Below are positions 12,541 to 39,974 of a DNA stretch of 64,000 bases, piece after piece (positions within the stretch are counted from its first letter, which is position 1; each line of letters begins with the position of its first letter). This DNA is from Mesostigma viride. Lineage: Eukaryota; Streptophyta; Mesostigmatophyceae; Mesostigmatales; Mesostigmataceae. Under the pieces are notes generated by a model. That model was not told the DNA's origin, ran no database searches, and saw nothing but the letters and a program-made list of their open reading frames with translations. The stretch is taken from contig RPFO01000213.1 in the NCBI GenBank assembly GCA_009746045.1, positions 13,899,221-13,963,220 on the forward strand, in the 5' to 3' direction. The position numbers and the translations under genes were made by a program.

Positions 12541-15500
12541 ATGGCTCGCAGTCGTTTGATCCCAGCATTACAAACACTACGCCGGTCTGCACGGTCCTGT
12601 GCAAGCGTGGCAAGTCAACGTCTGGCCTCCCCGGCCGAAAGCACCGCGCTGCCTGCCCGGGCTGCCAATGGCCTCCATTCAAAAGAGCCGCTTAGTACTG
12701 CTTTGTCGTCCTGGGCAGCCAATGGCCGCAGGTACTTTTCTGCTATGGCGTTGGCCGCCGCTGCTGCTGGGGCAACCACGGCCATGTCCTTGGCCGAACA
12801 GCAGCGGGATCCGAAAGCTGGCGGGTTGCCGGAAGAACTGGTGACCGAGCTCATCGCGGCACTTGACGTAAGCGGCCAGGCTCTTGCGGTTTCATGCATG
12901 TTCCTTCGTTCTCAATTTCCGGGGCCCTTTCGCTGAGCCAGAGGCTCTTGCTCTCGATTCCCATGCTGGACCCCTGCTCGACCGCAGAGCGACCGGGTGA
13001 CCACGGACGAGGATGAGTGCCAGTCCCACGGGAAGCCCTGGAACAGCTACCACAGCATCCCGGAGTACCCTGACGCCGTGGTGTTCCCCAGGTAGGACCC
13101 CGCCAGCGCATGGCACTTTAGGGTTTGGGGTCTAGGGTTTCGGGATGGCTTCGCTGCCTGTAGTAGGCTTGGCGATGGCAACTCCTTTTGGCTCCCAACA
13201 GGTCCCATTCCACTGGTTCCTGCGGTCCTCTCTGGTGGTACGGCCAGATATGTACGTGTGCCGTTATGTACACGTTGTTGTGCTATGCTTTGCGAGGGCA
13301 GCTTCTTTTCTCAACGGGGGTTGGATTCCATATGCCTCGCGATATGTTTCCCCAGGCAGGGTGCTGCCCACGGGCCACGTACGATCCCATGATTCCCTTC
13401 CAAGACCTGAGGGACCTGGCATGCCTAACGGTGGGAGCGAGCCCGACTCATCCTGCTCCATCAAGTGGGGGCAGCGTTGGTGGGGCTGGTGGGGTTGGTG
13501 GGGCGGGGTTGGCGGAGTGGGGTTGGTGGGGCGGGGTTGGTGGGGCGGGTTTTGTGGGGCGGGGTCGGTGGGGTGGAGTTGGCGGCGCGGGGTGATGAAG
13601 CCGGGTGCCATTCATAACAGTCAGGCTAGACTGGAGATGTGCACCCAGGGGTCCTTCTGCGTGCTGCTCACGCAGCCAACTGTACCCGACATTTTGTGGT
13701 CATCCATGTCGTTGGCAAGACATGTCAGCAATGGTTGCTTCATACGCCATCTGCTGTCGATATTTCGGGTCAATATGGAAAATGGGCATGTTGGGTTGAC
13801 ATGTGCGGTTGATAGGTCGGGGGCATCACACATGCACATGCTCGTGCACATGCTCGCGGACCAGCCTATCAAGGAGACAACCAGCGCAAGCCAGAAATCT
13901 GGAGAATCCACTGACCAGCCTATGCTCACTCAAGCCCTTATTGCCCACCTCCCATCCAGTTAGGGCACAGCCCAAAATTGTGCCCTGGTCTTACCTGCTG
14001 TACAAGTGGAACTGTTACTAGCTCCCACTCCGCTTCCCATCTGTCCTCTCCTCCTCCTCCTCCCCCCCCCCCCCCGGGCCCCCCTCATAGTCGCCTTTCC
14101 TCATTTGCTTTTCTGCCCACAAGGCCGCAGAGCTGCAGCATGCGATATCAGATATGAAGTTTAGTCTAAGATATGAATTTGTATTTAAAACCAGACGAGA
14201 ATGCTCCGTTATTACACTATACCTGCCCACAGGATAACGGCGGTATGGCCGATTGGGCCACCTCCCACCTAAGGCGAGAGTACTCCCCTTTTACCTACCC
14301 ACCCAGCGTCCCTCTTGCCGTCCCCCACCGGCCCCTTTTTCCCCAGGATCACGCTGGTGCCATTATATTTTTAGGTCAATACGCTCAGAACAATACTCTA
14401 GAAAGAATAACAAAGGGTTCTCATGTTTACTTGTTGCGTCCGCCCACAGGACGACCGAGGAGGTGGTGGCCATCGTGCAAGCGTGCGCACGCCACGGCGT
14501 GCCACTTGTCGCGTACGGGGGCGGCACGTCCCTGGAGGGCCACACGCTTGCCCCCCAGCGCGGCGTCTCCATCGACTTCACCAGCATGGATGCCGTCGTT
14601 AGGCTGAATGAGGACGACCTCACCGTCACCGTTCAGCCCGGCATCGGGTGGGAGACGCTCAACGACTACCTGCGGCCGAAGTACGGTGGATGGGTGGGCT
14701 ATGTTGGTATTGATGCGTGATATTCTTTTTATTAGACCACCTCGACGCGGTGCTGTATCTTCCTGTGGCCAAAGTACGGTGGATGGGACTATGAAGGATG
14801 GACTGTCAAGGAGACAACCAGCGCAGGCCAGAATTCTGGAGAAACTAGGTTGGTATCGATGGAGAAACTAGGTTGGTATTGATGCGAGGTACGTTCTGGT
14901 CAAATATTGGTATCGATGCGAGGTACGTTCTGTTCAAATATTGGTATCGATGCGAGGTACGTTCTGGTCAAATATTGGTATCGATGGGAGGTACGTTCTG
15001 GTCAAATATTGGTATCGATGGGTGGTTAAATATTGGTATCGATGCGTGGTTAAATATTGGTATCGATGCGTGGTATGTTCTGGTTCAATATTGGTATTGA
15101 TGCGTGGTATGTTCAGGTTAAATACCCTCGACGCGGTGCTGCGGCCAAAGTGCGGTAGCGGAGTGATTCGTGGCCAACATGTGGGTGATGTGTGACGCAT
15201 GCTAGTGGTGACAACCGTCAAACCTGGGCTGGCTGTCTCATTTGATTGCCATCTCCACGCCTCGCATTGGCCTTGAACAAAGCCACCCCCTTGCCCCCTC
15301 CCCTGCAACTCCCCACTCCCCCCCCCCCCTCCAGGGGCCTCTTCTTCGCGGTGGATCCAGGCCCTGGCGCCACGGTGGGCGGCATGTGCGCCACGCGTTG
15401 CTCAGGGACCCTGGCCGTCCGCTACGGCACAATGAAGGACAACGTCGTCTCGCTGCGCGCGGTGCTGGCCAACGGGGATGTGCTTAAAACTTGCGCACGC

Positions 15501-16768
15501 GCCAAGAAGAGCGCGGCTGGATACGACCTCACGCGCCTGCTGGTGGGGTCGGAGGGCACGCTGGCACTCGTCACGGAGCTCACGTTGAAGCTGCACCGGC
15601 TGCCGCCATGCAGCGCGGTACGTAAGTTCTGTGCGGATGTCTTTGGTGCCTTACGGGTGGGGTCGGCCTTGGCATGGACCGTGTCTTGGCGCACGCTGCA
15701 CGGTGGGTGGTGTCGTGTGCACCGTGTCTTGGCTCCTTCCCCTTTTCTGGTACGTACTAAAGGTTTATTAGGCACTGAAACGTCCGAGTCTTAGCGCACC
15801 CTCAAGCTGCACAGCTGCCGCCATGCAGTGTGCGAAGGCCTGTTCCGTGGGCTGAAACCGCGGAGTACTTTGGCCGATTCAAGGTGCGCTGCGTCACCTG
15901 ATCACACGCACTGCCTTGGCGGATAATGTGTGCCTTTACTTTGTACGTATGCCTTTTGCGTCTCATTTTCTTGTGGTGTGTATCTGCCTGTGAATGGGAA
16001 CCACACAACATAACCCCCCCCCGCGACCCCCCCCAGGTCGCCATGTGTCAGTTCCCCAGTGTGCGCGCGGCCGCCGCCGCCGCCGCGTCCCTGGCGTCCC
16101 ACCTCCCCGTGACGCGCTGCGAGATGCTCGACGAGGTGATGATGCGCGCGGTCAACCTGGCGAACGAGGAGCAACTGCCAGAGGCTGTCACGCTCATGCT
16201 CGAGCTGTCCGGAAGCACAGGCGCGGTCGCGGACCAGAAGATCGACGCGGAGAGGATCATCGGCGACCACGGTGGGACCGGGCTGCGATTCGCCGACTCG
16301 GACGAGGAACGAGCCCGGCTGTGGCGCGCTCGTAAGGAGGCACTCTGGTCGGCAGCGACGTTGCGTCCGGAAGCAGAAGCGATGATCACCGACGTCTGCG
16401 TGCCCCTATCCCGGCTGGCCGACTGTGTCACAGAGACCAAGGCGGAGCTCGAGGCGTCGTTTCTGCCGGGGCCGATCGTGGCGCACGCGGGGGACGGCAA
16501 TTTCCACGTCATTCTCATGATCGACCCGAGCAGTGAAAAGGACCTCAAGGAGGCTGCGCGGCTGAACGCGAGCATTGTACGGCGGGCAATCGCGATGGAG
16601 GGCACGTGCACGGGGGAGCATGGGGTTGGCACGGGCAAGAAGAAGTACTTGGTTGAGGAGCTGGGACCGGAGGCGGTCGCGCTTATGGCCCGCATCAAGC
16701 GCACGATGGACCCCCAGGGAATCTTCAACCCTGGCAAGGTGGTGGACGTGGCGCCGGGGGATGCATAG
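12541..16768 (+). CDS. LDHD: D-lactate dehydrogenase (cytochrome-type, FAD-linked), mitochondrial
   Basis: Five exons: 12541-12867, 12988-13091, 14450-14680, 15335-15617 and 16037-16768 (558 aa; all introns GT-AG, all phases consistent). It oxidises D-lactate, for example the product of the glyoxalase pathway, to pyruvate using FAD and passes electrons to cytochrome c. The basic, Ser/Arg/Ala-rich N-terminus starting [18 protein letters not shown] fits a mitochondrial presequence. FAD-binding motifs include [43 protein letters not shown] and the following [30 protein letters not shown]. The C-terminal catalytic domain has [22 protein letters not shown] and [11 protein letters not shown]. Order, length and motifs match plant and animal D-LDH (about 560 residues). 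Glycolate dehydrogenase is the nearest alternative but lacks the HGKPxNSYH-type lead-in seen here in exon 2. Introns 2 and 3 carry retroposon fragments and a minisatellite. Confidence 0.92.
13470..13594 (+). repeat. G-rich GGTGGGG(C/T) repeat in D-LDH intron 2
   Basis: About 125 bp of GGTTGGTGGGGCGGGG-type units with many runs of four G. It lies in the 1.36-kb second intron on the transcribed (sense) strand, so it could form G-quadruplexes in the pre-mRNA; that is inference. The ORFs across it are low-complexity shadows. Confidence 0.75.
13870..13912 (-). mobile_element. 43-bp retroposon micro-insertion with 11-bp target duplication
   Basis: The insert runs from CAAGGAGACAACCAGCGC to GGAGAATCCACT and is the reverse complement of the last 43 nt of the Penelope-like element found at 34345-35194 and 35577-38087. 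It is bracketed by perfect 11-bp copies of GACCAGCCTAT (13859-13869 and 13913-13923). It sits in intron 2 of D-LDH and is minus-oriented relative to the element's coding strand. Confidence 0.85.
14807..14845 (-). mobile_element. Penelope-like 3'-end fragment in D-LDH intron 3
   Basis: CAAGGAGACAACCAGCGCAG followed by GCCAGAATTCTGGAGAA matches the same element 3' terminus with few changes. No clear flanking duplication remains, probably because later tandem expansion (14868 onward) altered the right flank: GGAGAAACTAGGTTGGTATC is itself repeated. Confidence 0.65.
14868..15123 (+). repeat. 34-bp minisatellite in D-LDH intron 3
   Basis: Seven to eight copies of a unit starting TTGGTATCGATGCGAGGTAC, with internal variants that lose 10-15 bp. 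It is flanked on both sides (14740-14790 and 15124-15165) by diverged copies of the exon 3/donor junction (GCGGCCGAA/GTACGGTGG in exon 3; GTGGCCAAAGTACGGTGG and GCGGCCAAAGTGCGGT in the intron). Confidence 0.85.
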
Positions 16769-16910
16769 AGTGTATTTAGTTCTCGTTGTTATTTGTCTCA
16801 CAAATTCAGTTTACTACGTGTGTCATGTTTGTACATGATCATGTGACACAGTCTACTTGTAAATTTGTTGTTTGTACATGAGTGTGCCTTGTGTTCCTAA
16901 ACAAGATTAA

Positions 16911-18647
16911 CCCGTGTTTTTTTAATTAGAACGCGATATATCGCGTTGTAAGCTTTTTTTAGAACGCGTATAGCACCTAAGGAAAATTTTTTTTCATGGT
17001 CATGTATATACTTTCCTGAAAGCCCATAAATCAAAGGATTTTTTGAGCTACTCAGACCTACAAACTGCTTATTCATTAGAGAGATACACTGGTTTGAATA
17101 CAGGGGGGTCTGACCATGACCGCGATTTCTTGACCCTAGGTCACAAGTCATGCGCTTATTCACAAATGGTTCATGAAAAAAATCTGGCTTCTTGCACGAG
17201 CTATGGGCAACATATGCAGGCTCTGTGAAACAAAACTCAGGCCCATTGGGCCACTGGAGCTATTTTTCATTAGCATCACAATTACAACGCAGTACAACGC
17301 AGTGGGAAACATGAGAGCCCTTGACAACATTACGCAACGACCCGAGCCCCATAAACGGGGCCATAGTGAGCTTGGAGGGTCAAAACGTTGAACATAGGCG
17401 TTGTATAAGTTATACAGCATCAAACATGCATCAAACATCATGACTGGATGACCTAATATGACTGAATCAGGCAGCCATAGCCAAAGCATCATCCACTCTC
17501 ACAACGTGTTGAGCACATGCCTCGTGGGAATGGAGGTGCTGGGTTTTCATTCCATAACGCGTGCAATACTGAAAGAAAGAGGCACGTGTAATGCAAGGCT
17601 TGGATAGGTTGAGTGATCCATGAGCTTACATGCAGGCAAAGATGACGCTGGAATGCATGCTAGCAAATGGTGGCAAGATGCTAACAACACATGATTATAC
17701 ACCATGATTATGGGCACCCAGCTGATCTTCTTGCACAATCAACGCAGTATAAACCATCAACATCCAATCCTCACGATATATGCACGGCTTGACGACGTAT
17801 ACAGCACCTAAATACTGCACAACTGCAACCTGCTATGGCTGACATGCAAGCAACGTCGAGTAGGATGGCGGTCTTAGAGAGGCTGGGCAGAGGTCGGTAG
17901 AAATAAGTGGAAAACTGGCAGAAACTAGGTAGAAACACGATATACTTACGCCTGCAAGCACTATTGAGCCGGTGGCAGAGGCCATTTCCAGGAAAATACA
18001 GCATACCGTAGCAATAGCCACGGTCACGCCTTACGCTATTTGCAGGCACCATCATGCCCGGAGCTACCCAATAAAAGTCTGCACAAATCTCGGTTTAGCC
18101 GAGAGTCCGGGCGTTCGGAATGAATAAACATGTGTTAAGAAGTCGAAACACCATGGAAATACCAAGCATGGTGCCGCAGCAGACCCGAGTCTTGACGTAA
18201 TAATATGTATGCCGGTTTCCAGGGTTTCCGCATGAAAGTTGGGTGAGAAACTGGAAAAAACTACGTTTTCTTTGCCCCAGTACCTCAACAAACTCGTAGA
18301 AACCTAATTATCAACCTTTGAACGCATCATCATGGTCGTGCTACCCAACAGCCACTGAAATTCGCGCGAAAACTGGCGAGATCTACCTGCCGCCATCGCC
18401 GTCGTCTTCACCTTCGTCCCGCGAAAATGCCTGATTTCAGTGGTACATATTTGTTTGCAGCTGTCACAAAAAAAATACCAAAAATACCAGGATTTTTTCT
18501 TGAATTCTATGAGATGTTTCTGACCTGTCTTGAAAGTTTCAGACCAAAAATCGCATGTTTAATAGGTTTGCCACGTGTCAGATTACAACGCGATACATCG
18601 CGTTCTAACCCTACAACGCGATGTATCGCGTTGTAAAAAAACACGGG
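16911..18647. mobile_element. TTAA-flanked terminal-inverted-repeat transposon, non-autonomous (element T2)
   Basis: Left end CCCGTGTTTTTTTA (16911-16924), right end its exact complement (18634-18647), each abutting TTAA (16907-16910 and 18648-18651). Both ends carry the subterminal palindrome AACGCGATATATCGCGTT (one copy left, two right). A CCC start plus TTAA duplication is what piggyBac-superfamily elements show. No transposase ORF is visible in the 1737 bp, so movement would need a transposase encoded elsewhere. The right TTAA belongs to the TTAATCAATTAATTAA tail of a family B retroposon, so the tail probably provided the target site. Confidence 0.7.
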
Positions 18648-18651
18648 TTAA

Positions 18652-19092: not shown

Positions 19093-19109
19093 GCAGATCT
19101 ATAGAGGCA

Positions 19110-20589: not shown

Positions 20590-20942
20590 AGACATGGACT
20601 TGTGTTATCCTCGACGGGGCGGGCTCACACCTGGGGAACCCCCTGATTTGTCTGTAATATGGAGGCACAGATCGATGACACGTAAAGATAGGTGGCAGAC
20701 AATTACTAATGCAGGACACCGGCCCCCAGTAGGTGCCGGGGCCCCGCGTGTGACCACGTTTGGCGCAGGGATAGTGATTCGGGGCGTGGTGCCCGCAACG
20801 TACCCTGTAACTATAGGAACTAGATAGCTCCACTAGCTATCCACCCCATCCCATCTTCATTTATCTAAGGACTTATGCTAGATCACGTTATGCAGTAACA
20901 TGTAAATCAATTATTTAATTAATTCATAATAATTCATAATAA
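20590..20942 (+). mobile_element. Family A LINE 3' end with hairpin and TTAA-type tail (A4)
   Basis: 20590-20880 shares diverged sequence with 58880-59265 (for example GTGTGACCA...GTGATTCGGG...CATCCCAT...TTATGCT). Both end in the A hairpin: here CACGTTATGCAGTAACATG at 20884-20902, then AATCAATTATTTAATTAATT. A 7-bp CACGTAC follows the tail (20944-20950) and also occurs just before the reverse transcriptase pseudogene (19108-19114), which would make 19115-20943 one LINE insertion. That link is tentative because 7 bp is short. Confidence 0.55.
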
Positions 20943-20950
20943 ACACGTAC

Positions 20951-21583: not shown

Positions 21584-24500
21584 TTAAATATGGGTCGGCG
21601 AGGTCGGCAGCACCTGCGGCGACACCTCTGCCAGTATCGTCAACGTCTTGTCCAGTGCAAGTGAGAACCCAGGCCGGCTAGCCATCGGCCCGGGCCCCCG
21701 CTGCTGCAGCAAGCTGAGCTGCTGCTGCGTGCCCACGGCCACAACCGCATCGCGCCCTGCCGCCCCGCTCGCCGCCAGCGCGCCCAGCATCTCTAACGCC
21801 AGCATTGGGAGGTCGTCGAACACCGACGTGGTCGCCACCGTCAAGAACCCTGCGGCAGGGGCATGCTGGGGGAACGATGAGGGTGCGCCGTTGACCCACC
21901 CGGGCATGTGCACCACCTCGTCCGCGAGCGAGTTGTAGCGCCGCACGAGCGCCAGCAGGACCCGCAGCGCACCCTGCTTGGCCGCGGGGGGGGTCTCGGC
22001 CGCCGTTGCCACCTGGACGAGGCAAGGGAGCGTGCCCCGCCGCGTCTGCATCTCCGCAAGGCATTCCTCGCGGGTGACCGGCTCGTCCTCCCTGGTGGCA
22101 ACGACAGCATTACTGCCGTGACCAACGCCACCTGCGGCCCCCTGTCCCGATACATCGCCACCCGTGTTCATCCCCAACCTGACACCGGTCATGTCCTCCC
22201 CCTCGTCTACCGTCGCACGGATACGCGCCACGCCGTCCTCGCCCACGCCCCCCTGGCCAGGGTCCCCCGCGGCAGGGTCCCGTACCATCTCCGCCAGCAG
22301 CAGGCAGAGCGCCTCCAGGTACCCCCGGTGAGGGCTGGCGTCCGCGGCAGGGCCCTTGATCCCTGCGGCTGCTGCCGCCGCCGCGGCCAGGGGCTTGGAC
22401 TGCAGCACATCGAGCAAGAGCCCTAGCGGCCCAACCCGCATGAGCTGATCTCTGGCGCCCGCGACGTACCCATCCTCTGCCAGCAGCCACGCGCACCAGA
22501 CCGCGTGCTCAACCTCCCTCGCCCCCGCATCCGCATTGATAATCCCGCCGACCGCCCCTGTGGCACCTGAAGCCGCCGACAACCCCACGTCCGACCGTTT
22601 GGTGGCGGTTGCCAGCGTGGTGGCGGCGAGGCCCTCGCCCGGCGCCGGCTGGTTGCTGCGGCGCAGCGCGCATGCCACCAGGTGGAACAGCGGGCCCAGA
22701 CCGCCCACGCGCATCATGGCCGCCTTGCTGGCATCTGTGACCAGGAGCGCCCGCAGCACCTGCCCTGCGCTCGCACGGAGCACAGAAAGCTGCCAGATGG
22801 CGCCGCCCAGGATGCTCACGTCCAGACTGCCGGGGTATACCTGCTGGGGGCCACTCCCGGGCTGATTCAGCCCCGCGCAAAGCAGCCCTGCGAGCGGCTT
22901 CTCGGCACCCTCGGCCGTGATGGAATGGGCATTGAAAAGGGACGCGGCGGCCATCTGAGCCAGGCAGCGCGCGGCGCATGCCTTTGGCAGCGGGCCGTGG
23001 CAAGGGAGGGAGAGAAGGGCCACCAGGCGAGGCACCACGTCGCTCCGGGTCAGCACCTCGTCCTCGCCTGAGAAGGAGGATAGAATAGAGCCCAGGGACT
23101 CGAGCACGGCCGAGAGTTCCAGCTCCCGGTAAGGTGGCAGGTACGGCCCGGGCTCCGTGCCGGCGATGGCATAGCCGCCGTTGACGGCGCTGCCACCATC
23201 CATGCTGCTGCTGGGGTAGTACGCGTCAGTGGTAAGGGCGTTACCGCTGGTACCCGCGGCAATACTATCCGCGGCGTTGTTCCGGTCGCTTATGCCCGCA
23301 GCTTCCACGGAAAGAGCGAGCACGCCCTGTGATAACGCCGCCGCCACGCTGCTGCTGCGTCTATGCGAGGGACCCAGGGGGGACCGGCCGGGACCACCGG
23401 CAAGGGACAGCGGGACGTAGAAGATCTCCCGCACCACCGCCCGCAATGGTCCCCCGGGTGCCGCGACCGCTGCCCGCGTGGCCGCGTCGTAGACCGCCAG
23501 GTGGCACAGCGCGTGCGCGGCATAGCGGCGGCAAGTCTTATCGCCGCGGAGCGCTGCGGAAGAGACGGACCGGGCCGCAACCACCGGGGCAGGGGACGTG
23601 GGCGCGCTGCGATCAAACTGCTTCTCGAACTGCTTGTCAAACTGCTTTGAGCGGCCAAACCCGAGGTTGAGCCGCGGCCATCGCCCGCTGCTGTCGTCGC
23701 TGTCCGAGGACGTGTCGGACCCATCCAGGTCACTGCTCTCGTCCGAATCACTCATCTCGAAGCGCAGGTCCCGCTCCCTCCGCCTCTCCTCCTCTTCCTC
23801 TTGTTCCTTCCGTTTTCTCTCCACTTCCGCCTCGGCCGCGGCCTTTCTCGCAGCCTCAGCCGCCGCCGCCGCCACCGCAGCGGCTTTTTCATCTTCCTCG
23901 GTGGTAATCTCGGGATCTGCACCGAGTGTGGCGGCCTGTGCGGCGGCCCCCACAACCGGCTGCGGCGGCGTGGCTATACTCTCCATCTCATCCTTGAGAA
24001 TATCCACCAGCGTGGCCACCGCACCCGCCTCGACCAGCTTCGGGGCAAAGCTCTCCCTCTTGGTGCCGTATGCGAGCAGGTAGCTCATGACTGCCGCCGC
24101 CTGCGCACCCACCGAGAGCTGATCAAACGACGACGCCCCCGCCGATGACGACGTCATCGATGGCGAGGACAGCGAGGATGCCGAGGGGACCAGGGTGGCC
24201 GCTGGTCCTGTGCCGCTACTTGCAGCCGTACCTGTTTTCGCGCCGGTGGCACCCGCTTTGGTGCTAGCGGCCGCACCGGCACTTCCTGCAGCAGCTGCTG
24301 GCTGTGGTGGGGATGAAGATGCCTGCTGGCTCGCGGCGTGCAGGGCAGCCACCAGGCCCTGCGCAATCGTGGGCAGCTTGCGCGCGTCTGCCAGCAGCGC
24401 CAGGTTGGGCCCCGAGTGCGACGCAAGCGCGCCTAGGAGCACGCCCACAGCGGCCAGGGACTCCCTGGCGCAGGCCGCGCGCGCCACCGCCACCTCCGCC

Positions 24501-27500
24501 TCCTCCTTTGGCTCGCCGCCACCATCCCCCGCGCCCCCGAACGACGAGCTGCTGGTTGCGGACGCAGCAAAAGCAGCTCCTGCTCCAGAGGGCGAGGCCG
24601 GTCCCTGGGATGGGGAGAAACCCTGCAGCAGGGACGCGAGTAACGGCAGCGCGCCCGCGGCGCCGATCTTCTCCTGCCGGCGCACGTCATCGCACGCCAG
24701 GTGGCGCAGGGACCGTGCGGCCAGGGTGGCCAGGGACAGCGCCGCGGCGGTGGTGGCGGCAGAGACCGCGACGGGGGCGGGGGCAGCGGCCGCTGCGGAT
24801 GGCGTTGTGGCGGCGGCTGATGCTGCCGCTGCGGCAGTGGCAGGGCTCTGGGGGCTAGTAGGCTGTTCCCCTGCGGTGGTTGCTGCATCGGATGGCTGCG
24901 CGCCGCCGTCACTGGTCGTATCCGAGGTCATGGTACGAAGCATGCCTTCCTGCGGTGGTGGCGGCGTTAGCACCGCCACCTCACCGCCGGCAATGGCAGC
25001 CATGGACGGTGACGGCGGTGGCATGCTCGCTCCGGCCTCCGTGGCGGGGCCCTTGGTAACCGGCTGGCTGGACGCATCTTGCGATGGGGATGGCTTTGCG
25101 GGCTGGTTTAGGGGCGCCGGGGCGTTGGCAGCATTAGCTGTGGTATTGGTCGAAGGCGCTCGAGGGGCCTCCTCTTCCCCGACACAGCAAGGAAAGCACG
25201 CGAATGGGCCCTTGGCGCCGCCGCCACCGCCGCCATCATTGGTGCCCGCATTTCCTCCCTTGCCTTGCACGACGGGCGTCGCAGGCAGCGCCCCTTGCAC
25301 GTTGATGTACTTGGTGGCACGCGCCTTGGTGAGCGCGACAGCCGCATCCTGCCACCGAAGGAGGGACACCAGGGGGGCCACCGCGCCGGCTGGTGTGGGG
25401 GTGCGCGGGGGTGCGTGGGGGTAGAGGTGCATGGGGGCATTGGGGGCCGGAGGACGGCGCATGCGGGAAGGCAGAGGGTGGGGCATGCAGGGAGGCAGAG
25501 GTGTAAATATTATGATTTTGGCAAGAAGTTTAAGTTGCGATGTGGATTCTAAAAAAATGAGGGACAAAGATCCTAGGCGCCCCTGAAGGCGTGGCGTGAC
25601 GATCTAAAGGCATTAATAAATTAATTAGGAACATAACTCCGTTGTTAGTACACGTGACGATCTTAAGGCATTTCGATGATATACTACTAGAAGTATGAAA
25701 TAAGCCACAGGACGATCTGTACGAGTTGAAGGGCATGATGTTCCTTACAGACGAGGTAAAGTATGCGGTCATCATAGGTGAGCTGATAGGACCACTCCCA
25801 GTCATAGCAGCATACAACTAGTATTAGAACTAGTATGAGAACCAGGTAAGGCACTTCGACCGCAGGGGAGCTACAAGGCACCAGGCTTTGCGGGGGCAGC
25901 CCCTCGTCCAATGGTGACCATTATAGTGACCATGATAGTGACCATGACCATGATATCAGGCTTTGCAGGGGCAAACTGGCGTCCCAAGGCGTCAGATTCG
26001 ATTATCCTAGCAGGCCTCCAACACCATCACCCCTACCGCTTCGCAAGGCAACCGCCCAAGCACTGTAGTGACCAGCGCAGTGACCGATGGGTCTAGTACA
26101 GCATACTACGGCTGCGCAAGGCGACCGCCCAAGCACTGTAGTGACCAGCGCAGTGACCGATGGGTCTAGTACAGCATACCACGGCTTCGCAAGGCAACCG
26201 CCCAAGCACTGTAGTGACCAGTACAGCGACCGATGGGTCTAGTACAGCATACCACGGCTTCGCAAGGCAACCGCCCAAGCACTGTAGTGACCAGTACAGT
26301 GACCAATGGCTCTAGTACAGCATACTACGGCTTCGCAAGGCAACCCCTCGGGGGTTGGATTAGGAACATGTCGCCCTACCTTGCATGGCCTCGGCCTTGC
26401 TGGCCTCCGTCACCAACAGCGACGACAGCAGCTCCAGCCCCGCCTTCTTCTTCTCCATGTCCTTCCCCTTGATGAGCCCCACAAGCGGCACGATGATGCC
26501 TGCACCGCTGGCCCCCACCTGCCACGTCTCGCCGCCCTCCTGCCAGACCAGCACGCGCGCGAGCGTGGCCGCCGCGTGCATGCGACACGTGTCACCGCCC
26601 CCCGTGCGCGTGACCAGCGTCATGAGTAATGGGACCGCACCAGCGTCTGTCACCGCCGCCACCGCCGCCGCCACCGCCTCCTTGCCGGCATCTGGTGCGG
26701 GCGGCGGGGGTGCCGAGGATGCCCCGGGAGTGGGCGTTGGCGTTGGCGGGGTGGTCGCGGTGGCGTTTGCTAGCGGCGCCGCATCGAGGAAGAAGTGGAG
26801 GAAGCGCGCGGCGGCGGTGATGATGCCGTCGTCGTTGGCCGCCACGATGCGCAGCAGCTGGACGACAGGTGGCACCTGGTGGTTGGCCGAGCACCGACAA
26901 GGTGTGTGTGGGGGGGGGAGCAGGAATGGACGTGGCTACGTGAGGTCAACCTCTGTAATGATTTCCAAAAGGGGACAGAATCATGGGCCTGGCGCCTCAC
27001 AGGTCCCGCACTAGTCACAAGAAAGGACTACCCGATGCTCTGAGCCCTGCTACCGAGTCATTCAACCGCTACAGCGCAAACACACCCACACCTCATACAC
27101 AAACTCACCATACATACAGACACCCACACCCTCATAAGGCCCCCACGGTCACACTCATGCACACACACACACACACACACAGCCTGCAAGATTCTGGCAA
27201 AATCCTCCCCACGAATCATCCCACGCCTGCTCATGAGGCCCTGCCATCCGCAAAACAACTTGCATCTGCCACACAACTTCCGCACATACCCCCCCCGCGG
27301 CGCGCACGGCCGCCGCCGTCTCTGGGCTGCGGTGCACCAGACTGCCCAGCACCATCGCCGCGGCCTCTGTGAGCGCGGTCACTGTATTAGAGCGAACGAG
27401 GCGCAGCAGGTGCGGCAGCAGCTGCGAACGGTGCGCCGCCATCTCTGCCACCGCGGGCGCAAACACCTCGGGGTCGGCGCTCAGGTTTGCCAATGCCAGC

Positions 27501-31668: not shown

Positions 31669-32964
31669 ATGACGCGAGCAGGACTGCTCAGCAGGCATGG
31701 TCGTTCCGTTCATGCCCTGCTCAAGCGAGCACTTGTAGACAGTGCACGCTGTAGTGTCGAGGGTGCTCAGCGTGCGGCCGGTAGCGGCAGTCTAGGCAGT
31801 TATGTGCAAACGGCCGCCACCGAAGTGATGCCTTCAGAGTGTACACTGTTTTCGCAACGAAGGGCCTATGGGTTGACGCGTCTCAACGAGTGCCGCGTCT
31901 CGCATCACGGTATTCGTGCGTTGTCCTCTCAAGCCACGAACTCGGAAAAGGCTCAGAAGGAAAAAGACAGTGCCCTTGTGCAGGACGAAGGCGATGCGTT
32001 TGACTCATTGACAGACCGTATCCCTGAAAAACCTGTATCGGTGGCCGAGGCCGGCGGGTACGGAATCGTCATTCTGGCCGCTTTCGGCGTTGCCGGGGTG
32101 GCAGCATACTCGGTCTTCAAGGAACTGGTCCTTGAACCTACAGAGTACAGGATATTTGACATCGCGCTTAAAAGGGTGCAGCAGGACAGCCAGGTATGTT
32201 ATCTTACTTATCTATGTCCTCAAGTTTAGATTAGGTGGTACGTTCCTTTGCTGACGCACCTTCTTCTGTCACCTATTCTGCAACCTTCTACGCAACTTGC
32301 TTTATTCCCCCCCCTTCCCTCAAACCCTCCTTTCACCTACTTGTCCACTTTGTGATTCTTGTAAAGATGGGATGATTTCTTGGTAGCATTTGATTTCAAC
32401 CTGAGCTATCAAGGAGACAACCACTGAGCTATAATTGAATTGTTTTGGGGGGGGCAGATCCGCTCTAGTGCCATTGTAGGGTATTGTACACGGAGGCACA
32501 TATTCACTATTGGGTGCGTTTGGAGCTAATGGCTGCCTCCTTTTCCCTGTGCCGTTGTTCCCTTTGCCTCGTTCTTCCTGCATCTCTTCTCTGCGCTGCC
32601 TCTTTCCCTGCATGTCCTTTCCGTGCACCTCGTTTTCCTTTTGCCTCGTCTGTGGCAGGTGCTCCTGCGCGTGGAGGGCCCGATCAGCGGGTACGGGTCG
32701 GAGAGCCAGAACCGTGCCGCGCGCCAGCGTATCCCCCATCGTGAGTACGTGGACAAGTCGGGCAACAAGCACGTGGCGGTCCAGTTCCACATCCGCGGCC
32801 GGCATGGCGCGGGCGTGGTCACTGCAGACATGTACCAGGACAACGCAGCAGGTGGAAAGGAGTGGAAGTACGCCTACTTGACGGTGGAGATCACGGCGCC
32901 GTACCCGACGCAGATTATACTGGAGCCACCGGAGCAGTCATATGTGGAGCGGCCCGCCAAGTGA
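31669..32964 (+). CDS. TIM21: Mitochondrial import inner membrane translocase subunit TIM21
   Basis: Two exons, 31669-32193 and 32659-32964 (276 aa), GT-AG intron in phase 0. TIM21 sits in the inner mitochondrial membrane with its C-terminal domain in the intermembrane space, and links the TIM23 import channel to the TOM complex and respiratory chain. The N-terminus (MTRAGLLSRHGRSVHALLKR) is a basic presequence. A single membrane segment lies at about residues 129-151 (GYGIVILAAFGVAGVAAYSV). The conserved TIM21 domain follows: EYRIFDIALKRVQQDSQ, GPISGYGSESQNRAARQRIP, HREYVDKSGNKHVAVQFHI, GVVTADMY and WKYAYLTVEI. Length and order are normal for the family. The last codons lie inside a short tandem repeat. 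The intron carries a 14-bp retroposon micro-insertion. Confidence 0.92.
32410..32423 (-). mobile_element. 14-bp retroposon micro-insertion with 9-bp target duplication
   Basis: CAAGGAGACAACCA, the reverse complement of the last 14 nt of the Penelope-like element, is bracketed by perfect CTGAGCTAT copies (32401-32409 and 32424-32432). It lies inside the TIM21 intron. Alone it could be chance, but the same sequence in the same register flanked by different duplications occurs at 13870 and 38439. Confidence 0.75.
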
Positions 32965-33064
32965 TGGGCGTCAATTAGATGACCCGCCAAGTGATGGGGG
33001 TTGATTAGATGACCCGCCAAGTGAGGGGCGTCAATTAGATGACCCACCAAGTGAGGGCCGTCAT
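32952..33064 (+). repeat. 30-bp tandem repeat containing the TIM21 stop codon
   Basis: About four copies of CCCGCCAAGTGATGGGCGTC plus AATTAGATGA, the first of which carries the last codons (Pro-Ala-Lys) and TGA of TIM21. Each later unit again has AAGTGA. The repeat arose by duplication of the gene's 3' end and lies in the 3' untranslated region. Confidence 0.8.
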
Positions 33065-33780
33065 TTCCACTACTAAGTACAGGGGTGCATGTTGATAGCA
33101 AGTCAAGGCATGTCATGGGTTTCATCGAGGCAACGCGCATGACACAGTCCACCAAGGGGTTGACATGGCGAGGATGAACATTAGGGGAGGTGCCCAACCC
33201 ACGCTATCTAGTACATGTCTTGCCAACGCCTGTGGCATGGCGGGATTATATTTGGAGTGAAACTGATTCGATACTCTTAGTGTATGTTCAGGTGTCTTAT
33301 CCATGTCCCTAGGCTTCATGTGGAGCCCAAATGAAGTACTGCAAAACTTCAGACCTATTGGCTTGCATTGTCATTAGATCTATGTTTTTTGTTCATGTTT
33401 GAAAAATCCCTGGGGTTGGTGCAAGAGATGTACGGTGGGTTTGTGTTTTTTTCATCATGGTGAAATGCCGTTGAGTGTTCCCAAATCTCAAATGCCCGTG
33501 CGTTGAAAGTGAAGAGTGCACGACAGCTAAGTCATGGCTAGTCCTCGGGTACCGGCCTAGTCCTAGCTTTCCAGTTAACGGACTCGCTTAGCTGATAGAG
33601 ATCAAAGCATCTTGAGCAAAAATGAGATTATCAATGAGATTATAATGAGACTATAGCTGTAAGGTAGGCGCTTGACCAATCGAGATTATCAATGAGATAG
33701 TGTGCAGTGCCATGGTCCAAAAATGCATGCAATCGATCACACAAGGGGCTCTGACAATGGACCATGCATTGTCAGCCCAT

Positions 33781-33816
33781 TAATTAACTGATTAATTAAA
33801 CTCATGCTCCCGTTGG
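33781..33816 (-). mobile_element. 36-bp family B micro-insertion with 10-bp target duplication
   Basis: The insert starts TAATTAACTGATTAATTAAA and ends CTCATGCTCCCGTTGG; read on the minus strand it is half of the B hairpin followed by the TTAA tail. It is bracketed by perfect GTCAGCCCAT (33771-33780 and 33817-33826). Confidence 0.8.
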
Positions 33817-33890
33817 GTCAGCCCATGGTGCTAAAGCACCTTTGTGTACTATAGCATGTACTATAGTATGCATTTTTGCCCCCATGTTAC

Positions 33891-34205: not shown

Positions 34206-34334
34206 TAGGAATATATATACCAGTAGTGTAGATTAGTAAGGCTTAGCCTAGCATGTGGCCCACGCGCATGTGCGCCCATAATGGCCCCCATGGATGTTGC
34301 CTTCAGAATTTAGCCAAGCCATGCCTATAATGGG

Positions 34335-35244
34335 CAGGACTTATCAAAGAGACAACCAGCGCAGGCCAGAAATCGGGAGAATCCGGACCATGGTAGCTCG
34401 AGCCTGCCGTTATCTTTTCCGCGTTTTCGAGTCGTTCAGGATGATGAAGATGAATGGTGATGGAAATGTGTATCCTTGTGCATTGAAATTATGGCTGGCT
34501 TACGTGTGGAGCGACTAGATGACCTAGACGGTGGGGCCGGAAACAGCATGCTTGATCAGGGCGTGTGTTTCTAGCCTAACTGGCCGGGAGTGTCTAGTGG
34601 TGAGCACCATTGCTGCGATCGCTCTCCCACCATTTACGAGGAAATACCCGCAAATGGAAAACCACTGAAAAGATCTAGCTAGTCAGTCATCACGTTAGCC
34701 ATGCCATGATTCCAAACGTCCAAGAACTGCACACGGTGCAAAGGCAAAAAGCCGGAGGACAGCACTTTCAAATGTGCGGCGGGAACCAAAAGCCCGCGGA
34801 TGCCAGAAAACATCGTGTTGCGGCAGCGACGCGACGATGTGGACAACGAATCCAGTGCCAAGCTCGGAACGGCCGCAAAGGAGATCTGGCATCACAGGGT
34901 TCAGATGTGCGGAGATACTATGCGATCCAGCCGGTCCACGACCTGTTTGTAGAGCTTGTGCCAAGGGGCAGCACCGAACAGATGTGGGTGACGTTGCAAA
35001 AAACATCGGACTTGACGGAGCATAATGGCTCGGTCATAGTCTTTGACCAATAAACGCTGCAAGAGTTCAACAAGAGTCGTGATGAAATCAACACGATAAG
35101 AACAAAGACGGGAAAAACGATGTAACTGAGAAAGAACAACACCATATTTTGCTGTGTGGGAAAGGAGACTGTGAATATCGGGGTAACGAATAAAAGGACT
35201 TATGCTCACGTGACGCAGTCACGTGTCTATTAATTAATTAATTA
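34335..35244 (+). mobile_element. Family A micro-element (A2) with 14-bp target duplication, split by a nested element
   Basis: ATGCCTATAATGGG occurs at 34321-34334 and 35245-35258. Between them, once the nested Penelope-like copy and its duplication are removed, only about 51 bp remain: CAGGACTTAT, then GCTCACGTGACGCAGTCACG and TGTCTATTAATTAATTAATT. The hairpin (CACGTGAC-GCA-GTCACGTG, 35206-35224) and TTAATTAA tail are complete. This is one of the best proofs that family A copies are true insertions. Confidence 0.8.
34345..35194 (-). mobile_element. Penelope-like retroelement, 5'-truncated copy 1
   Basis: 850 bp on the minus strand, bracketed by perfect AGGACTTAT (34336-34344 and 35195-35203). 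The coding strand reads the end of a reverse transcriptase (about 35209-34903, the first few codons lying in the flank): KYGVVLSQLHRFSRLCSYR, VDFITTLVELLQRLLVKDYD and FLQRHPHLFG, then a stop and about 560 bp of 3' untranslated sequence ending GGTTGTCTCTTTG. The GVxxSQxxRFxRxCS...F...L...LL..xYD pattern is the thumb region of Penelope-like and related reverse transcriptases; that assignment is from memory of the pattern. It was inserted into the family A micro-element, which gives a relative age. Confidence 0.75.
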
Positions 35245-35485
35245 ATGCCTATAATGGGACCCCCATGGATGTTGCATTAAGAATTTAGCTATGCTATACC
35301 TATGCAGAGAGATGCTCTCTGTCGAGAAGCCATGCCCTAGCCCTCGTATAGCCATGATGATCTTCCCCCCCATGGCATGCTCCCCCCCCCTTCTTGGCTG
35401 GGCATAGCATGATAGACCATGAGGGTGCGGGTGCCCTGGTGCACCTAGAGCAAGTGTTGCTTACATTCCACTCTTGCAGGAAGTA

Positions 35486-35570
35486 GCCTAGAATGTATTA
35501 AAAGCCATATGCCCCTTCTCAGGGATATGTGCTACATATTCTCCCAACGGAGTTATGTTACAATTCAATA
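35486..35570 (+). repeat. Family C retroposon 3' end (C1)
   Basis: GCCTAGAATGTATTAAAAGC...GGGATATGTGCTACATATTC followed by TCCCAACGGAGTTATGTTAC. It shares over 60 bp with the TSD-bounded C copy at 44676-44774. The hairpin is ACATA-CTCC-CAAC-GGAG-TATGT type. It abuts the second Penelope-like copy. Confidence 0.7.
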
Positions 35571-36260
35571 GTATGCATGTGTCGATTTCATCACGACTCT
35601 TGTTGAACTCTTGCATTGTTTGTTGGTCAAAGACTATGACCGAGACATTATGCTCCGTCAAGTCCGGTGTTTTTTGCAACGTCACCCACATCTGTTTGGT
35701 GCTGCCCCTTGGCACAAGCTCTACAAACAGGTCGTGGACCGGCTGGATCGCGTAGTATCTCCGCACATCTGAACCCTGTGATGCCAGATCTCCTTTGCGG
35801 CCGTTCCGAGCTTGGAACTGGATTCGTTGTCCACATCGTCGCGTCGCTGCAGCAACAAAATGTTTTCTGGCATACGAGGGCTTTTGGTTCCCGCCGCACA
35901 TTTGAAAGTGCTGTCCTCCGGATTTTTGCCTTTGCACCGTGTGCAGTTCTTGGACGTTTGGAATCATGGCATGGCTAATGTAATGACTGAGTAGCTAGAC
36001 CTTTTCAGTGGTTTTCCATTTGCGGGTATTTCCTCGTAAATGGTGGGAGAGCGATCGCAGCAATGGTGCTCACCAGCAGACCCTCCCGGCCAGTTAGGCT
36101 CGAAACACACGCCCTGATCAAGCAAGCTGTTTCCGGCCCCACCGTCTAGGTCATCTAGTCGCTCTAGACACGTAAGCCAGCCATAATTTCAATGAACAAG
36201 GCTACACATTTCCATCACCATTCATATTCATCATCCTGAACGACTCCAACACGCGGACAA

Positions 36261-38009
36261 CAGAGTGAGATCGTACGTTATACGCGTTATACGGTCACGG
36301 TGGAGTATAATGTATAATACGGTATAATGCGGTATAATACGGTATTATACGTTTTCGTACGGACACACTCAGAATACTCTGATTTTACACATTTTAAGAC
36401 ACCCACCATCAATCCACATGTTTTTAACACTGTTTTGGACATAATCCAAGGTTGCCCTACCCTCGGCTATACTCTATACGGTGGATATTGTGGACACGAT
36501 CGATGTATTGCATGTAATACTGAGAATGTAAACGTGCGCATGCATAATTGTGTGTATGTGTATATATGTGGCTTTATATTGGTTATGTTTACTTGGGTGC
36601 CTTCACTTTGATGCAAGTAATTATATATTTTAATATATATATGTGGCTGTGCATGCACGCAAATACTACAGTAGTATACAATTAATGCATGTAGTATGTT
36701 TGCATGGTGCGATGCTATGTGAATATACTGAGCTGCATGTGACTACAGGTGTGTGACTCGTGGTGTGCATTAATTAATTAATTAACTGAATTAATTAATT
36801 AATATTAATTAATCTCGTGTCCCCGTTGGGGAACCACGGAGGCTAAACAGGTGGGGATGTGATAAGTAACTCACATATTCTCACCTTCCATACAACAACC
36901 TTGTTTTCCAGCAGGCTGAAGAGCATGACAGGCGTCTATGAGCTCGCCAGCTCCTTGCAACGGTGATGCCGCTCCCAGGCAGCTAGGGTCCTTGACTACG
37001 CAATATAGAATGTCTACCGTGTGAAAACCTCCATACAGGAAGCGTAGCAAAGCCAGATAACTGCCCGATCAATTCTGGGTAGCTTTAGGAAGCATGGCAT
37101 ACGCAGCGTAAGGAAAACCATTGAAAGCTGCGGAAAATCTGATAGCACAACTGCAACAAGTGGAGAACAAAATAGCAAGAAAAACCCAGAAACGGCGCAA
37201 AAAGTTTCATGCCAGGTTCATTAAGAGCGCAAACAGACTGGGCGGTGACATGCGGCAAATCAACGTACCACGGCCGGCATTATTTCCTACCCAGGCGCGC
37301 AAGAAAAGCCAGCCAGCCATGGATGGATTAACCGCGGATCGCGCAGGCCTGAACGAAATCATTTTAGAAATGACAGGAAATGGCCGCAGATCGAAGATGC
37401 TTAGGTTATTTTCATGGTGTCCGTTACTAAACGGCTCTTGCTGCATCAAAATAACCCACGAATGTCGAGTTCTACCGTCGCAGGCACACATGCTAGATTA
37501 TTCATCGCGGCCAAATTGACGTTGGATGAGACCCCCGTGCAAATCTGTACCAACAAAGGCAGCGAATTTGCAAATAGTGCAGATCTTGCTATGAAACATC
37601 ATAATAGAACATCACTTTTAACCATCGGCTTAATTTTTTCGCCTGTCGCCCGCCGGATTAGCCATATTTTAACGGAACGCACGTCGCCATGGCCACCTCC
37701 GCACGGTGCGCGCACTGTGCACCACAATGTCAAAATAAGATCGCGTCGAATTGTGAAAGTTCAGACGGGTCAGTACTTATAGTAGAGATACGAAATCTGT
37801 GGCTTCAAATCGTTGCCCTGTCGTTCTGGCATCCTAGCCGCGCAAAACGTAAAAAAAACGCGGAAAACACGGCATCATACGGTATAATACGGTATTATAC
37901 GTCATTATACGCTAAAACGTATTATAACGTATGAATCATACGCTCAAAGCCAGCGTATTACGTATTATACCGTATTATACCGTATTATACGGCGTATGAT
38001 CTCACTCTG
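36261..38009. mobile_element. Non-autonomous hAT transposon with perfect 8-bp target duplication
   Basis: The ends are CAGAGTGAGATCGTACG (36261) and the complement CGTATGATCTCACTCTG (38009): 16 of 17 bp inverted. The flanks are exact GCGGACAA copies (36253-36260 and 38010-38017), and copy 1 of the host element shows the unoccupied site. CAGAG ends with 8-bp duplications define the hAT superfamily (YARNG terminus). Subterminal arrays of GTATAATACGGTATAATACG at both ends (36307-36355 and 37878-37992) look like the transposase-binding repeats known for hAT elements. No transposase ORF is present in 1749 bp. A family B retroposon is nested inside at 36768-36840. Confidence 0.9.
36768..36840 (-). 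repeat. Family B hairpin with long TTAA tail, nested in the hAT element
   Basis: TTAATTAATTAATTAACTGA, more TTAATTAAT units, then CTCGTGTCCCCGTTGGGGAA and CCACGG. Read on the minus strand: hairpin CGTG-CCCC-AAC-GGGG-CACG followed by about 45 bp of TTAA-type tail, the longest in the window. Confidence 0.65.
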
Positions 38010-38438
38010 GCGGACAAGATAACGGCAGGCTCGGGCTACCATGGTCCGGATTCTCCCGATTTCTGGCATGCGCTGGTTGTCTCCTTGATGTTTGTAGCGT
38101 GCAGTAGTCATGTCGATCTGGACCAATCAACTGAACTTGGGACACTCTTGCAAGCACGGAATTCGTGCAATGTGTCGTGCATGTGCCAATAAACTTGTGA
38201 GATATGTAGTGTCGACCTTCGCATACAAGTGTATCAAGGAGACCTTCACATATGTTCATGCATGACAGTTTTGTATCCGTGATGGATACTCATCTGTCGC
38301 ATTTTAAGTGAGGCAACTGGATCTAGATGAGTTGTCCATCGTGTCCGACGTACACGATGGCCACTAGCTAGCCTGTCGGTCGGTCGGTCGCAATGCGGCT
38401 ATCGTGAGTGATAGGGGATACCCAAGCGATGGATTTAT

Positions 38439-38459
38439 CAAGGAGACAACCAGATAGAG
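38439..38459 (-). mobile_element. 21-bp retroposon micro-insertion with 11-bp target duplication
   Basis: The insert starts CAAGGAGACAACCAGATAGA and is bracketed by perfect GATGGATTTAT (38428-38438 and 38460-38470). The first 15 nt match the Penelope-like 3' terminus (reverse complement); the last six (GATAGAG) do not and may be non-templated bases at the 5' junction. Confidence 0.8.
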
Positions 38460-38479
38460 GATGGATTTATTCCCGTGGT

Positions 38480-38679
38480 TTGCACACGTGGGAAGCATGC
38501 TAGACAAAACCCCTAGGGTCGCGGGCACCATAGATATAGAGTAGGGTTGTTTTGTAGATAGATTAGACCAGTAGGATTGGGTGTACCCATCCATCCATCC
38601 ATCCATCCATCCATCGGGGTTATTAATAATCATTAATGCCCCGTGACTCGATCCCCAACGGGAGCACGAGTTTAATTAA
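38480..38679 (+). mobile_element. Family B retroposon, 200 bp, with 13-bp target duplication
   Basis: TTATTCCCGTGGT occurs at 38467-38479 and 38680-38692. The element between them ends with CCGTGACTCGATCCCCAACG GGAGCACGAG and the tail TTTAATTAA. It contains a (CCAT)8 run at 38584-38614. Its left duplication overlaps the duplication of the 21-bp micro-insertion, so the two insertions are successive at almost the same spot. Confidence 0.85.
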
Positions 38680-38692
38680 TTATTCCCGTGGT

Positions 38693-39612: not shown

Positions 39613-39625
39613 CTATCTTCCTCCT

Positions 39626-39962: not shown

Positions 39963-39974
39963 TATCTTCCTCCT

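What the first reader, a model, noticed from the sequence alone, without database searches (positions are those of the whole stretch)
13859..38692. Ultra-short retroposon insertions (14, 21, 36, 43, about 51 bp) with perfect 9-14 bp target duplications
Five tiny inserts each consist only of the extreme 3' end of a known local element family and are bracketed by different host duplications: 13870-13912 (GACCAGCCTAT), 32410-32423 (CTGAGCTAT), 38439-38459 (GATGGATTTAT), 33781-33816 (GTCAGCCCAT), 34335-35244 minus its nested insert (ATGCCTATAATGGG). Two unrelated 3' ends show the same behaviour, so the cell or a shared reverse transcriptase machinery seems to abort reverse transcription very early yet complete integration. 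Such footprints are invisible to repeat maskers and could be a widespread source of small insertions in introns. A weaker candidate is 38226-38240 between imperfect 12-bp GACCTTC(G/A)CATA copies.
Basis: seen in the sequence. Interest (0 to 1): 0.88.

Follow-up and report, generated by a model that had tools for sequence, protein, structure and literature searches.

The report
Tiny 3'-end retroposon footprints, alga
In a stretch of the Mesostigma viride (green alga) genome, jumping-gene copying events that broke off after only about 14 to 100 letters seem to have been sealed into the DNA all the same, leaving tiny scars; the process is known, but these scars are unusually short and easy to recognise.

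Summary
In detail: all five named inserts carry perfect 9-14 bp duplications. For family A, a 9-nt or longer duplication abutting the 3' end has a background of 0.4% per site; 3 of 6 plus-strand sites give P about 1e-6, 3 of 8 with the two dropped sites about 3e-6. The window is Mesostigma viride. Family A is the 3' end of a reverse-transcriptase-coding element. Families B, C and D behave alike; B and D share a 3' stem-loop with covariation. BLAST hits of A, B and D are 3'-anchored. An unbiased scan found 17 duplications of 11 bp or more around 10-110 bp inserts against 1.2 in shuffles; 12 of the 17 have no known source. Best explanation: target-primed reverse transcription with extreme 5' truncation. 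Human precedents exist (a 6-nt Alu remnant plus poly-A, poly-A-only insertions; PMC4859970), so this is a known kind; the shortness, the perfect duplications and the lack of poly-A in A stand out. 10 of 21 copies show no accepted duplication. Genome-wide tests could not be run (genome search did not complete).

The parts
13859..13923 (-). A footprint: 43-bp insert 13870-13912, duplication GACCAGCCTAT on both sides; 40 aligned nt plus ACT
32401..32432 (-). A footprint: 14-bp insert 32410-32423, duplication CTGAGCTAT; inside the TIM21 intron 32194-32658
38428..38470 (-). A footprint: 21-bp insert 38439-38459 (15 nt of A + ATAGAG), duplication GATGGATTTAT
34336..35203 (-). A long copy 34345-35194 (850 bp), duplication AGGACTTAT, nested in a C insert; carries an RT C-terminal ORF
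34904..35218 (-). Open frame read for the RT C-terminus; the element part is the 98 residues from PFIRYPD on
35579..38087 (+). A second long copy, 95% identical to the first over 682 columns, split by a DNA transposon at 36261-38009; no duplication found
14807..14843 (-). A 3' end, 37 nt, no duplication found
38226..38247 (-). Possible decayed A end (TATCAAGGAGAC) between imperfect 12-mers; not counted
34321..35258 (+). C footprint: 51 bp net (34335-34344 and 35204-35244), duplication ATGCCTATAATGGG
33771..33826 (-). B footprint: 36-bp insert 33781-33816, duplication GTCAGCCCAT; truncation point at the terminal stem-loop (my reading)
38467..38692 (+). B copy of 200 bp (38480-38679), duplication TTATTCCCGTGGT
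16826..16881 (+). C-like footprint: 30-bp insert 16839-16868, duplication TGTTTGTACATGA; found through the duplication scan
25595..25672 (-). D footprint: 38-bp insert 25615-25652, 20-bp duplication with one mismatch (11 nt exact with a 47-bp insert); in the ARM-gene intron; found through the duplication scan
44663..44787 (+). D footprint: 99-bp insert 44676-44774, duplication TATGGTCCTATCA
39614..39974 (+). D copy of about 337 bp (39626-39962), duplication TATCTTCCTCCT, 5 nt off the assumed 3' end; weaker (background 2.3%)

Best explanation
These are insertions made by target-primed reverse transcription (TPRT) of retroposon RNAs in the nuclear genome of Mesostigma viride. A nick exposes a 3' end (TAT in the four duplicated A sites); the RNA's 3' end is copied from there; copying stops after 14 to a few hundred nt; host end joining then closes the 5' side with a few extra or shared bases and the staggered break is filled in, giving a 9-20 bp duplication. 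Shown: duplications, 3' anchoring, variable 5' ends, RT coding in A, a 3' stem-loop in B and D. Inferred: the nick and its enzyme, that copying rather than the RNA itself was short, and the end-joining step.
For: Perfect duplications abut a constant 3' end; 3 of 6 A sites against a 0.4% background. Of 21 copies of families A-D examined, 11 have an accepted duplication of 9 nt or more at the 3' junction. Seven of the 21 have it with a short insert (10-110 bp), against 3.1% at random positions treated the same way: P 2e-6, or 5 of 19 and P 2e-4 after dropping the two copies found through the duplication scan. BLAST hits of A (862 nt), B (202) and D (338) reach the 3' end or its last 7 bases, except the 35579-36260 piece, which is the 5' part of a copy split by a transposon. 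Two other C copies run uninterrupted across the point where A sits at 34345 (59264-59289, 25 of 26; 20868-20879, 12 of 12), and a neighbouring unit (44634-44668, 30 of 35) runs across the D44663 point. A encodes an RT C-terminus: 98 of 98 residues identical to the Mesostigma gene model P0003, which also carries a YIDD motif; PADLOC RT models hit that part weakly (E 0.0045 and 0.021). B and D share a hairpin before the tail (covariation 0.429, shuffles 0.210, slid versions at most 0.219).
Against: 10 of 21 copies show no accepted duplication, including A at 14807 and 38087. For long inserts a 9-nt duplication is common by chance (19.8% within 2,600 bp), so the 9-nt one at A34345 rests on its empty-site match, and the 12-nt one at D39957 is weak (2.3%); a comparable 11-nt one at D35565 (insert 1,694 bp, background 4.6%) was not accepted. 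No endonuclease domain was seen, because only the RT C-terminus is available, and no Pfam or NCBIfam model matched. The very short A and B inserts have no empty-site match in the window. Only 64 kb was examined. 12 of 17 strong duplications flank inserts with no known family, so duplication plus small insert is not by itself proof of TPRT here.
Confidence: 0.86

Rival explanations
1. The templates themselves were short: 3' fragments of degraded element RNA were retroposed whole, so reverse transcription did not abort.
For: Gives the same footprint; RNA fragments with intact 3' ends would be recognised by an RT that needs only the 3' end (the stringent type described in PMC3747384, passages seen).
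Against: Extra nucleotides at the 5' side of 13870 and 38439 and likely junction microhomology at 34345 are as expected for an unfinished cDNA joined by repair (about 40% extra nucleotides and 50% microhomology for ZfL2-2, PMC2666801, passages), though fragments could be joined the same way.
Confidence: 0.12
2. Small pieces of DNA or cDNA were captured as filler at staggered double-strand breaks; the duplications come from fill-in of the overhangs.
For: 12 of 17 strong duplication-flanked inserts in the window match no family (flanks); capture of retrotransposon sequence at breaks is known (PMC4516963, start of abstract seen).
Against: Captured pieces should come from anywhere in the element; the BLAST hits of A, B and D are 3'-anchored, and outside the long copies exact 13-mers of A match only its 3' part and its first base position (a C-derived flank); three isolated internal 12-mers look like chance. 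The primer side ends in TAT in 4 of 4 duplicated A sites.
Confidence: 0.05
3. Longer insertions that later lost their 5' part by deletion.
For: The genome is repeat-rich and deletions happen.
Against: Each deletion would have to end at the inner edge of the upstream duplication, in eight inserts shorter than 100 bp.
Confidence: 0.02
4. Chance direct repeats near chance matches.
For: The duplication-only scan at 9 bp has a background of about 15; for long inserts short duplications are common by chance.
Against: 17 against 1.2 at 11 bp or more, 11 against 0.2 at 12 bp or more; P about 1e-6 for A; the 0-100 bp bin exceeds the fourteen longer-distance bins.
Confidence: 0.01

Closest known systems
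5'-truncated LINE-1/Alu insertions in humans, including poly-A-only insertions (PMC4859970, Table 1: Alu of 6 nt + 40 A in SERPINC1; Alu of 46 nt with an 18-bp duplication in CFTR; L1 of 90 nt with a 21-bp duplication in PTEN; four poly-A-only rows)
   Same: Only the 3' end is inserted; several have target duplications.
   Different: Human cases end in poly-A, so the shortest are hard to assign. Here the 3' end of A is a unique sequence without poly-A, so a 14-bp insert can be assigned. The 6-nt Alu sits at a 1.4-kb deletion and three of the four poly-A-only rows at 2-13.4 kb deletions without duplication; here the duplications are perfect.
ZfL2-2 LINE insertions in DT40 cells (PMC2666801, passages)
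   Same: 5' truncation, extra nucleotides or microhomology at the 5' junction, microhomology at the 3' junction; loss of NHEJ factors lengthens inserts.
   Different: Reporter-selected insertions there; fossils in an alga here.
Stringent-type LINE/SINE pairs of green plants with a 3' stem-loop and short tail repeats (PMC3747384, passages)
   Same: B and D have a covarying 3' stem-loop followed by an A/T-rich, often TTAATTAA, tail.
   Different: No partner LINE was identified in the window; family A has neither a clear hairpin (z -0.14 and -0.74) nor a repeat tail.
Tailless retropseudogenes (PMC5322556, passages)
   Same: TPRT products without poly-A, primed by short pairing with the target.
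   Different: Those are cut at the 3' side; A has a constant 3' end and is cut at the 5' side.

Membership tests
5'-truncated non-LTR (LINE-type) insertion | Variable-length target duplication abutting the element 3' end | tested here: met
   9-20 bp in 11 of 21 copies of A-D (D39957 weak); none accepted in 10
5'-truncated non-LTR (LINE-type) insertion | Copies share the 3' end and differ at the 5' end | tested here: met
   duplicated A inserts of 14, 21, 43 and 850 bp
5'-truncated non-LTR (LINE-type) insertion | Parent element encodes reverse transcriptase | tested here: met
   Family A only: 98 of 98 residues identical to P0003, which has a YIDD motif; weak PADLOC RT hits. The motif reading is mine; no Pfam hit
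5'-truncated non-LTR (LINE-type) insertion | Element-encoded APE or REL endonuclease and assignment to a LINE clade | not testable with these tools
   Only the RT C-terminal part (213 aa) was found; structure model of low confidence (mean pLDDT 45), not used
Penelope-like element | PLE-type RT with or without GIY-YIG endonuclease | tested here: inconclusive
   The Mesostigma genome paper lists PLE in a figure legend of repeat classes (PMC6947507); the RT piece resembles PLE motifs only by recall; no profile hit
LINE/SINE with stringent 3' recognition (B, C, D) | Conserved 3' stem-loop with compensatory changes and short repeat tail | tested here: met
   B and D: 6 of 10 pairs change on both sides (28 of 500 shuffles reach that), covariation 0.429 against 0.210 (0 of 500); further pair types not above shuffles (201 of 500) (7 sequences). 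C: hairpin present but covariation not above shuffles (88 of 500, 6 sequences)
SINE (B, C, D) | Small-RNA-derived 5' part with Pol III promoter | tested here: inconclusive
   No Rfam match at gathering score and no tRNA in the window; many copies are 5' truncated, so the 5' part may be missing
Tailless retropseudogene | 3' end truncated at internal single-stranded sites | tested here: not met
   A copies share one 3' end

The most novel reading that the evidence does not exclude
In this alga many TPRT events abort at one early step, when the reverse transcriptase must leave the terminal RNA structure, so footprints of about 15-50 bp form a separate class and not the tail of a smooth 5'-truncation spread. 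Hints: two A inserts stop at 14 and 15 templated nt; the shortest B and D inserts both stop at the loop or first 5'-arm base of the shared terminal stem-loop (my reading); 7 of 11 duplication-bracketed inserts are 51 bp or shorter. Against: A shows no significant terminal structure, and two of the seven were found because they are short and duplicated.
Probability: 0.2. Interest if true: 0.7.

Novelty: new member of a known kind. Interest (0 to 1): 0.45.

Why it matters
Because these elements end in unique sequence or a recognisable stem-loop and not poly-A, even 14-bp products of a failed retrotransposition can be identified to the base. That makes it possible to measure, from a genome alone, how often TPRT stops at each step, and how many small intron insertions come from it. 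Mesostigma is an early-diverging streptophyte, so the 3' stem-loop and tail of B and D may also bear on how the ancestors of plant LINEs recognised their RNA.

Tried and rejected
Genome-wide test: the genome search was asked for CAAGGAGACAACCAGCGC in the own genome 16 times; it did not complete. One viral contigs pattern scan found nothing, and two protein-guided scans found no relative.

RT clade: Pfam, NCBIfam and the PDB gave no acceptable match (one sub-threshold PAH hit at E 0.26 and one PDB hit at E 0.78, both for P0002). The AlphaFold2 model had mean pLDDT 45 and was not used for fold searches.

Considered and rejected: fixed-length-duplication DNA transposons (duplication length varies 9-20), Helitrons (duplications present; recalled features), later deletion, chance (see rivals). 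I did not count 38226-38240 or the pattern match 43156. Family-free duplication-flanked inserts (for example 4332, 8237, 47535, 48091) were not added to the parts because no shared 3' end was found. A link between the A truncation points and RNA structure was looked for; the A 3' end does not fold better than shuffles (z -0.14 and -0.74), so it is left as a hint only.

Limits of the controls: the A null is from plus-strand unmasked positions and includes the other real insertions; the shuffle null ignores ancient local duplications, so its excess is an upper bound for TPRT. The stem-loop was written by me from these sequences, which favours it over slid versions. In one search the B38480 query was built one base off; the right coordinates are.

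Paper searches: answered; 75, 77, 92, 94 timed out. So no claim is made that such short footprints are unreported.
Full report
WHERE IT IS. The armadillo-repeat protein frame at 21584-25603 (-) is 100% identical over the searched part (residues 760-1330) to a Mesostigma viride gene model (eukprot jgi/Mesvir1/12444), so the window is from this streptophyte alga (taxonomy). The published genome (strain NIES-296) is 66% repeats and 30.1% of intron space is repetitive (PMC6947507, passages and section 2.3 read).

CHECKING THE OBSERVATION. The five duplications and insert lengths are as reported. Small corrections: the 21-bp insert is 15 nt of element plus 6 nt extra; the 43-bp insert is 40 aligned nt (38 identical) plus 3 extra. 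The 34335-35244 insert is 910 bp, of which 850 bp is a nested A copy with its own AGGACTTAT duplication, leaving 51 bp of family C. One A end (14807) and one long A copy (ending 38087) have no duplication. At 37,581 unmasked plus-strand positions, an abutting duplication of 9 nt or more around a 10-110 bp insert occurs at 0.40%; 3 of the 6 plus-strand A-type sites (13870, 14807, 32410, 34345, 38235, 38439) have it, P 1.2e-6. The pattern also matched 43156 (9 nt, dropped as chance) and 38087 (minus strand); 3 of 8 gives 3.4e-6. 34345 has a 9-nt duplication around its 850-bp insert.

WHAT FAMILY A IS. The two long copies are 95% identical over 682 columns and share the 3' end but begin at different places, as 5'-truncated copies do. 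The first contains an open frame, 34904-35218 (-), whose element part (98 residues from PFIRYPD on) is identical to P0003, a 213-aa Mesostigma gene model with five member sequences in its cluster; P0002 (ENA) is identical at 81 of 98. P0003 has the sequence RYIDDV, which I read as RT motif C; PADLOC RT models hit the same region weakly (E 0.0045 and 0.021); Pfam has no match. So A is the 3' end of an RT-coding element of unassigned clade. P0003 reads on through the 5' junction of copy 1 (QQIPFIRYPD), and the CCT of its proline codon is also the end of the duplication: a likely 3-nt junction microhomology (my reading).

OTHER FAMILIES. B (18648, 33781, 36770, 38679, 55985), C (4908, 16868, 20923, 35244, 59289, 59832) and D (25606, 35565, 39957, 44774) have different 3' ends, mostly with TTAATTAA-like tails. 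Of 21 copies of A-D, 11 have an accepted duplication of at least 9 nt at the 3' junction: A 13870, 32410, 34345, 38439; B 33781, 38679; C 16868, 35244; D 25606 (19 of 20), 39957, 44774. Ten have none accepted: A 14807, 38087; B 18648, 36770, 55985; C 4908, 20923, 59289, 59832; D 35565. One search did list best hits for B 18648, B 36770 and C 59832 (in A/T tails or with a mismatch at long distance) and D 35565 (11 nt, 1,694 bp away), which I did not accept; for A 13870, 32410 and 34345 its best hits lie within or around the element, so searches were used. The 11 inserts measure 14, 21, 30, 36, 38, 43, 51, 99, 200, about 337 and 850 bp.

CALIBRATION. At 3,000 random unmasked positions treated like the copies (junction free within 24 bases), an exact duplication of 9 nt or more is found in 3.1% with inserts up to 110 bp, but in 19.8% with inserts up to 2,600 bp (2.3% at 12 nt, 1.4% at 13 nt). 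Seven of 21 copies have the short-insert kind (P 2e-6); leaving out C 16868 and D 25606, which were found through the duplication scan, 5 of 19 (P 2e-4). For long inserts only B 38679 (13 nt) and C 35244 (14 nt) are strong by length; D 39957 (12 nt, 5 nt off) is weak and A 34345 (9 nt) rests on its empty-site match.

3' ANCHORING. BLAST of the 862-nt A copy, the 202-nt B copy and the 338-nt D copy against the window gave hits that reach the 3' end or its last 7 bases, apart from the 35579-36260 piece, which is the 5' part of a copy whose 3' part lies beyond an inserted transposon. The shortest copies (A 32410 and 38439, D 25606) fall below that search's threshold; they were found as exact 3'-end matches or by the duplication scan. 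Three isolated internal 12-mers of A occur elsewhere and no internal 13-mer does. This is what TPRT predicts and random capture does not.

EMPTY SITES. Two other C copies (59264-59289, 25 of 26; 20868-20879, 12 of 12) run unbroken across the point where A sits in C at 34345. A neighbouring unit (44634-44668, 30 of 35) runs across the D 44663 point. For the C 34335 insertion, the neighbouring unit at 34281-34296 (CATAATGGCCCCCATGG) sets ATAATGG next to CCCCCATGG with two bases fewer, by eye. C 16826 has a 16-nt match elsewhere (1157-1172) that crosses the joint by two bases only, with unlike surroundings. For the remaining six joined queries no match across the joint other than short chance-like ones (and the B duplication at 38680 for A 38439) was seen, so the very short A and B inserts lack empty-site proof.

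UNBIASED SCAN. Ignoring families, duplications around 10-110 bp inserts outside tandem repeats number 51 at 9 bp or more (shuffled mean 15.3), 30 against 4.5 at 10, 17 against 1.2 at 11, and 11 against 0.2 at 12 (60 shuffles each). In the real sequence the 0-100 bp bin holds 19 at 11 bp or more against 0-7 in the fourteen longer bins. Of the 17, five belong to A-D (13859, 16826, 25595, 38428, 44663); the other 12 have no identified source and may be other retroposons, break-repair filler or decayed tandem copies.

RNA STRUCTURE. The RNA just before the tail, one copy each, folds better than shuffles in B (z -3.74), D (-2.92) and C (-2.08), not in A (-0.14 for 80 nt, -0.74 for 40 nt). Aligned together, four B and three D copies support one ten-pair hairpin: 79.7% of cells pair (0 of 500 shuffles reach it), six pairs change on both sides (28 of 500), covariation 0.429 against 0.210 (0 of 500) and at most 0.219 in slid versions; the number of further pair types is not above shuffles (201 of 500), and two of the ten pairs form in fewer than half of the copies. 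The truncated B 33781 and D 25606 copies were left out of this alignment, and I wrote the structure from these sequences. C has its own hairpin, but covariation does not exceed shuffles (88 of 500). Stem-loops with compensatory changes mark stringent 3' recognition in plant LINEs and SINEs (PMC3747384, passages). The truncated B and D copies begin at the loop or the first base of the 5' arm (my reading).

MECHANISM. In TPRT the nicked strand primes copying of the RNA from its 3' end. In the duplicated A sites the primer side ends in TAT in 4 of 4 cases; in the two without duplications it ends in TGT (14807) and CAT (38087). Copying stops early and the 5' side is joined with extra bases or microhomology, as in LINE insertions, which become longer when NHEJ factors are missing (PMC2666801, passages).

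COMPARISON. Human L1-driven insertions include a 6-nt Alu remnant with 40 A at a 1.4-kb deletion, a 46-nt Alu with an 18-bp duplication, a 90-nt L1 with a 21-bp duplication and four poly-A-only events, three of them with deletions and no duplication (PMC4859970 Table 1, read). LINE copies are said to be usually 100-1,000 bp (PMC3747384, passage). So the kind is known; the length, the lack of poly-A in A and the number of cases in one 64-kb window stand out.

VERDICT. Real, above chance, and best explained by TPRT with extreme 5' truncation. A new example of a known kind, with a testable and possibly novel point about where copying stops.

Noticed in passing
36261-38009: A DNA transposon with inverted ends (CAGAGTGAGATC...) and an 8-bp duplication GCGGACAA, read by eye, sits inside the second long A copy; hAT-like by recall.
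   Followed up: partly
4332-4383, 8237-8288, 47535-47593, 48091-48231: 13-21 bp perfect direct repeats around 14-43 bp inserts of unknown origin; the 8237 and B 33781 duplications share ATGGGCTGA next to the insert.
   Followed up: partly
about 48681-53450: Large minisatellite array with 17-bp spacing, read as long open frames in several frames.
   Followed up: no
38428-38692: An A footprint and a B copy in opposite orientation used overlapping target bases (GATGGATTTAT and TTATTCCCGTGGT).
   Followed up: partly
35478-35583: A D copy lies directly before the 5' start of the second long A copy; an 11-nt repeat of its 3' flank occurs 1,694 bp upstream and could mark a larger nested insert.
   Followed up: partly
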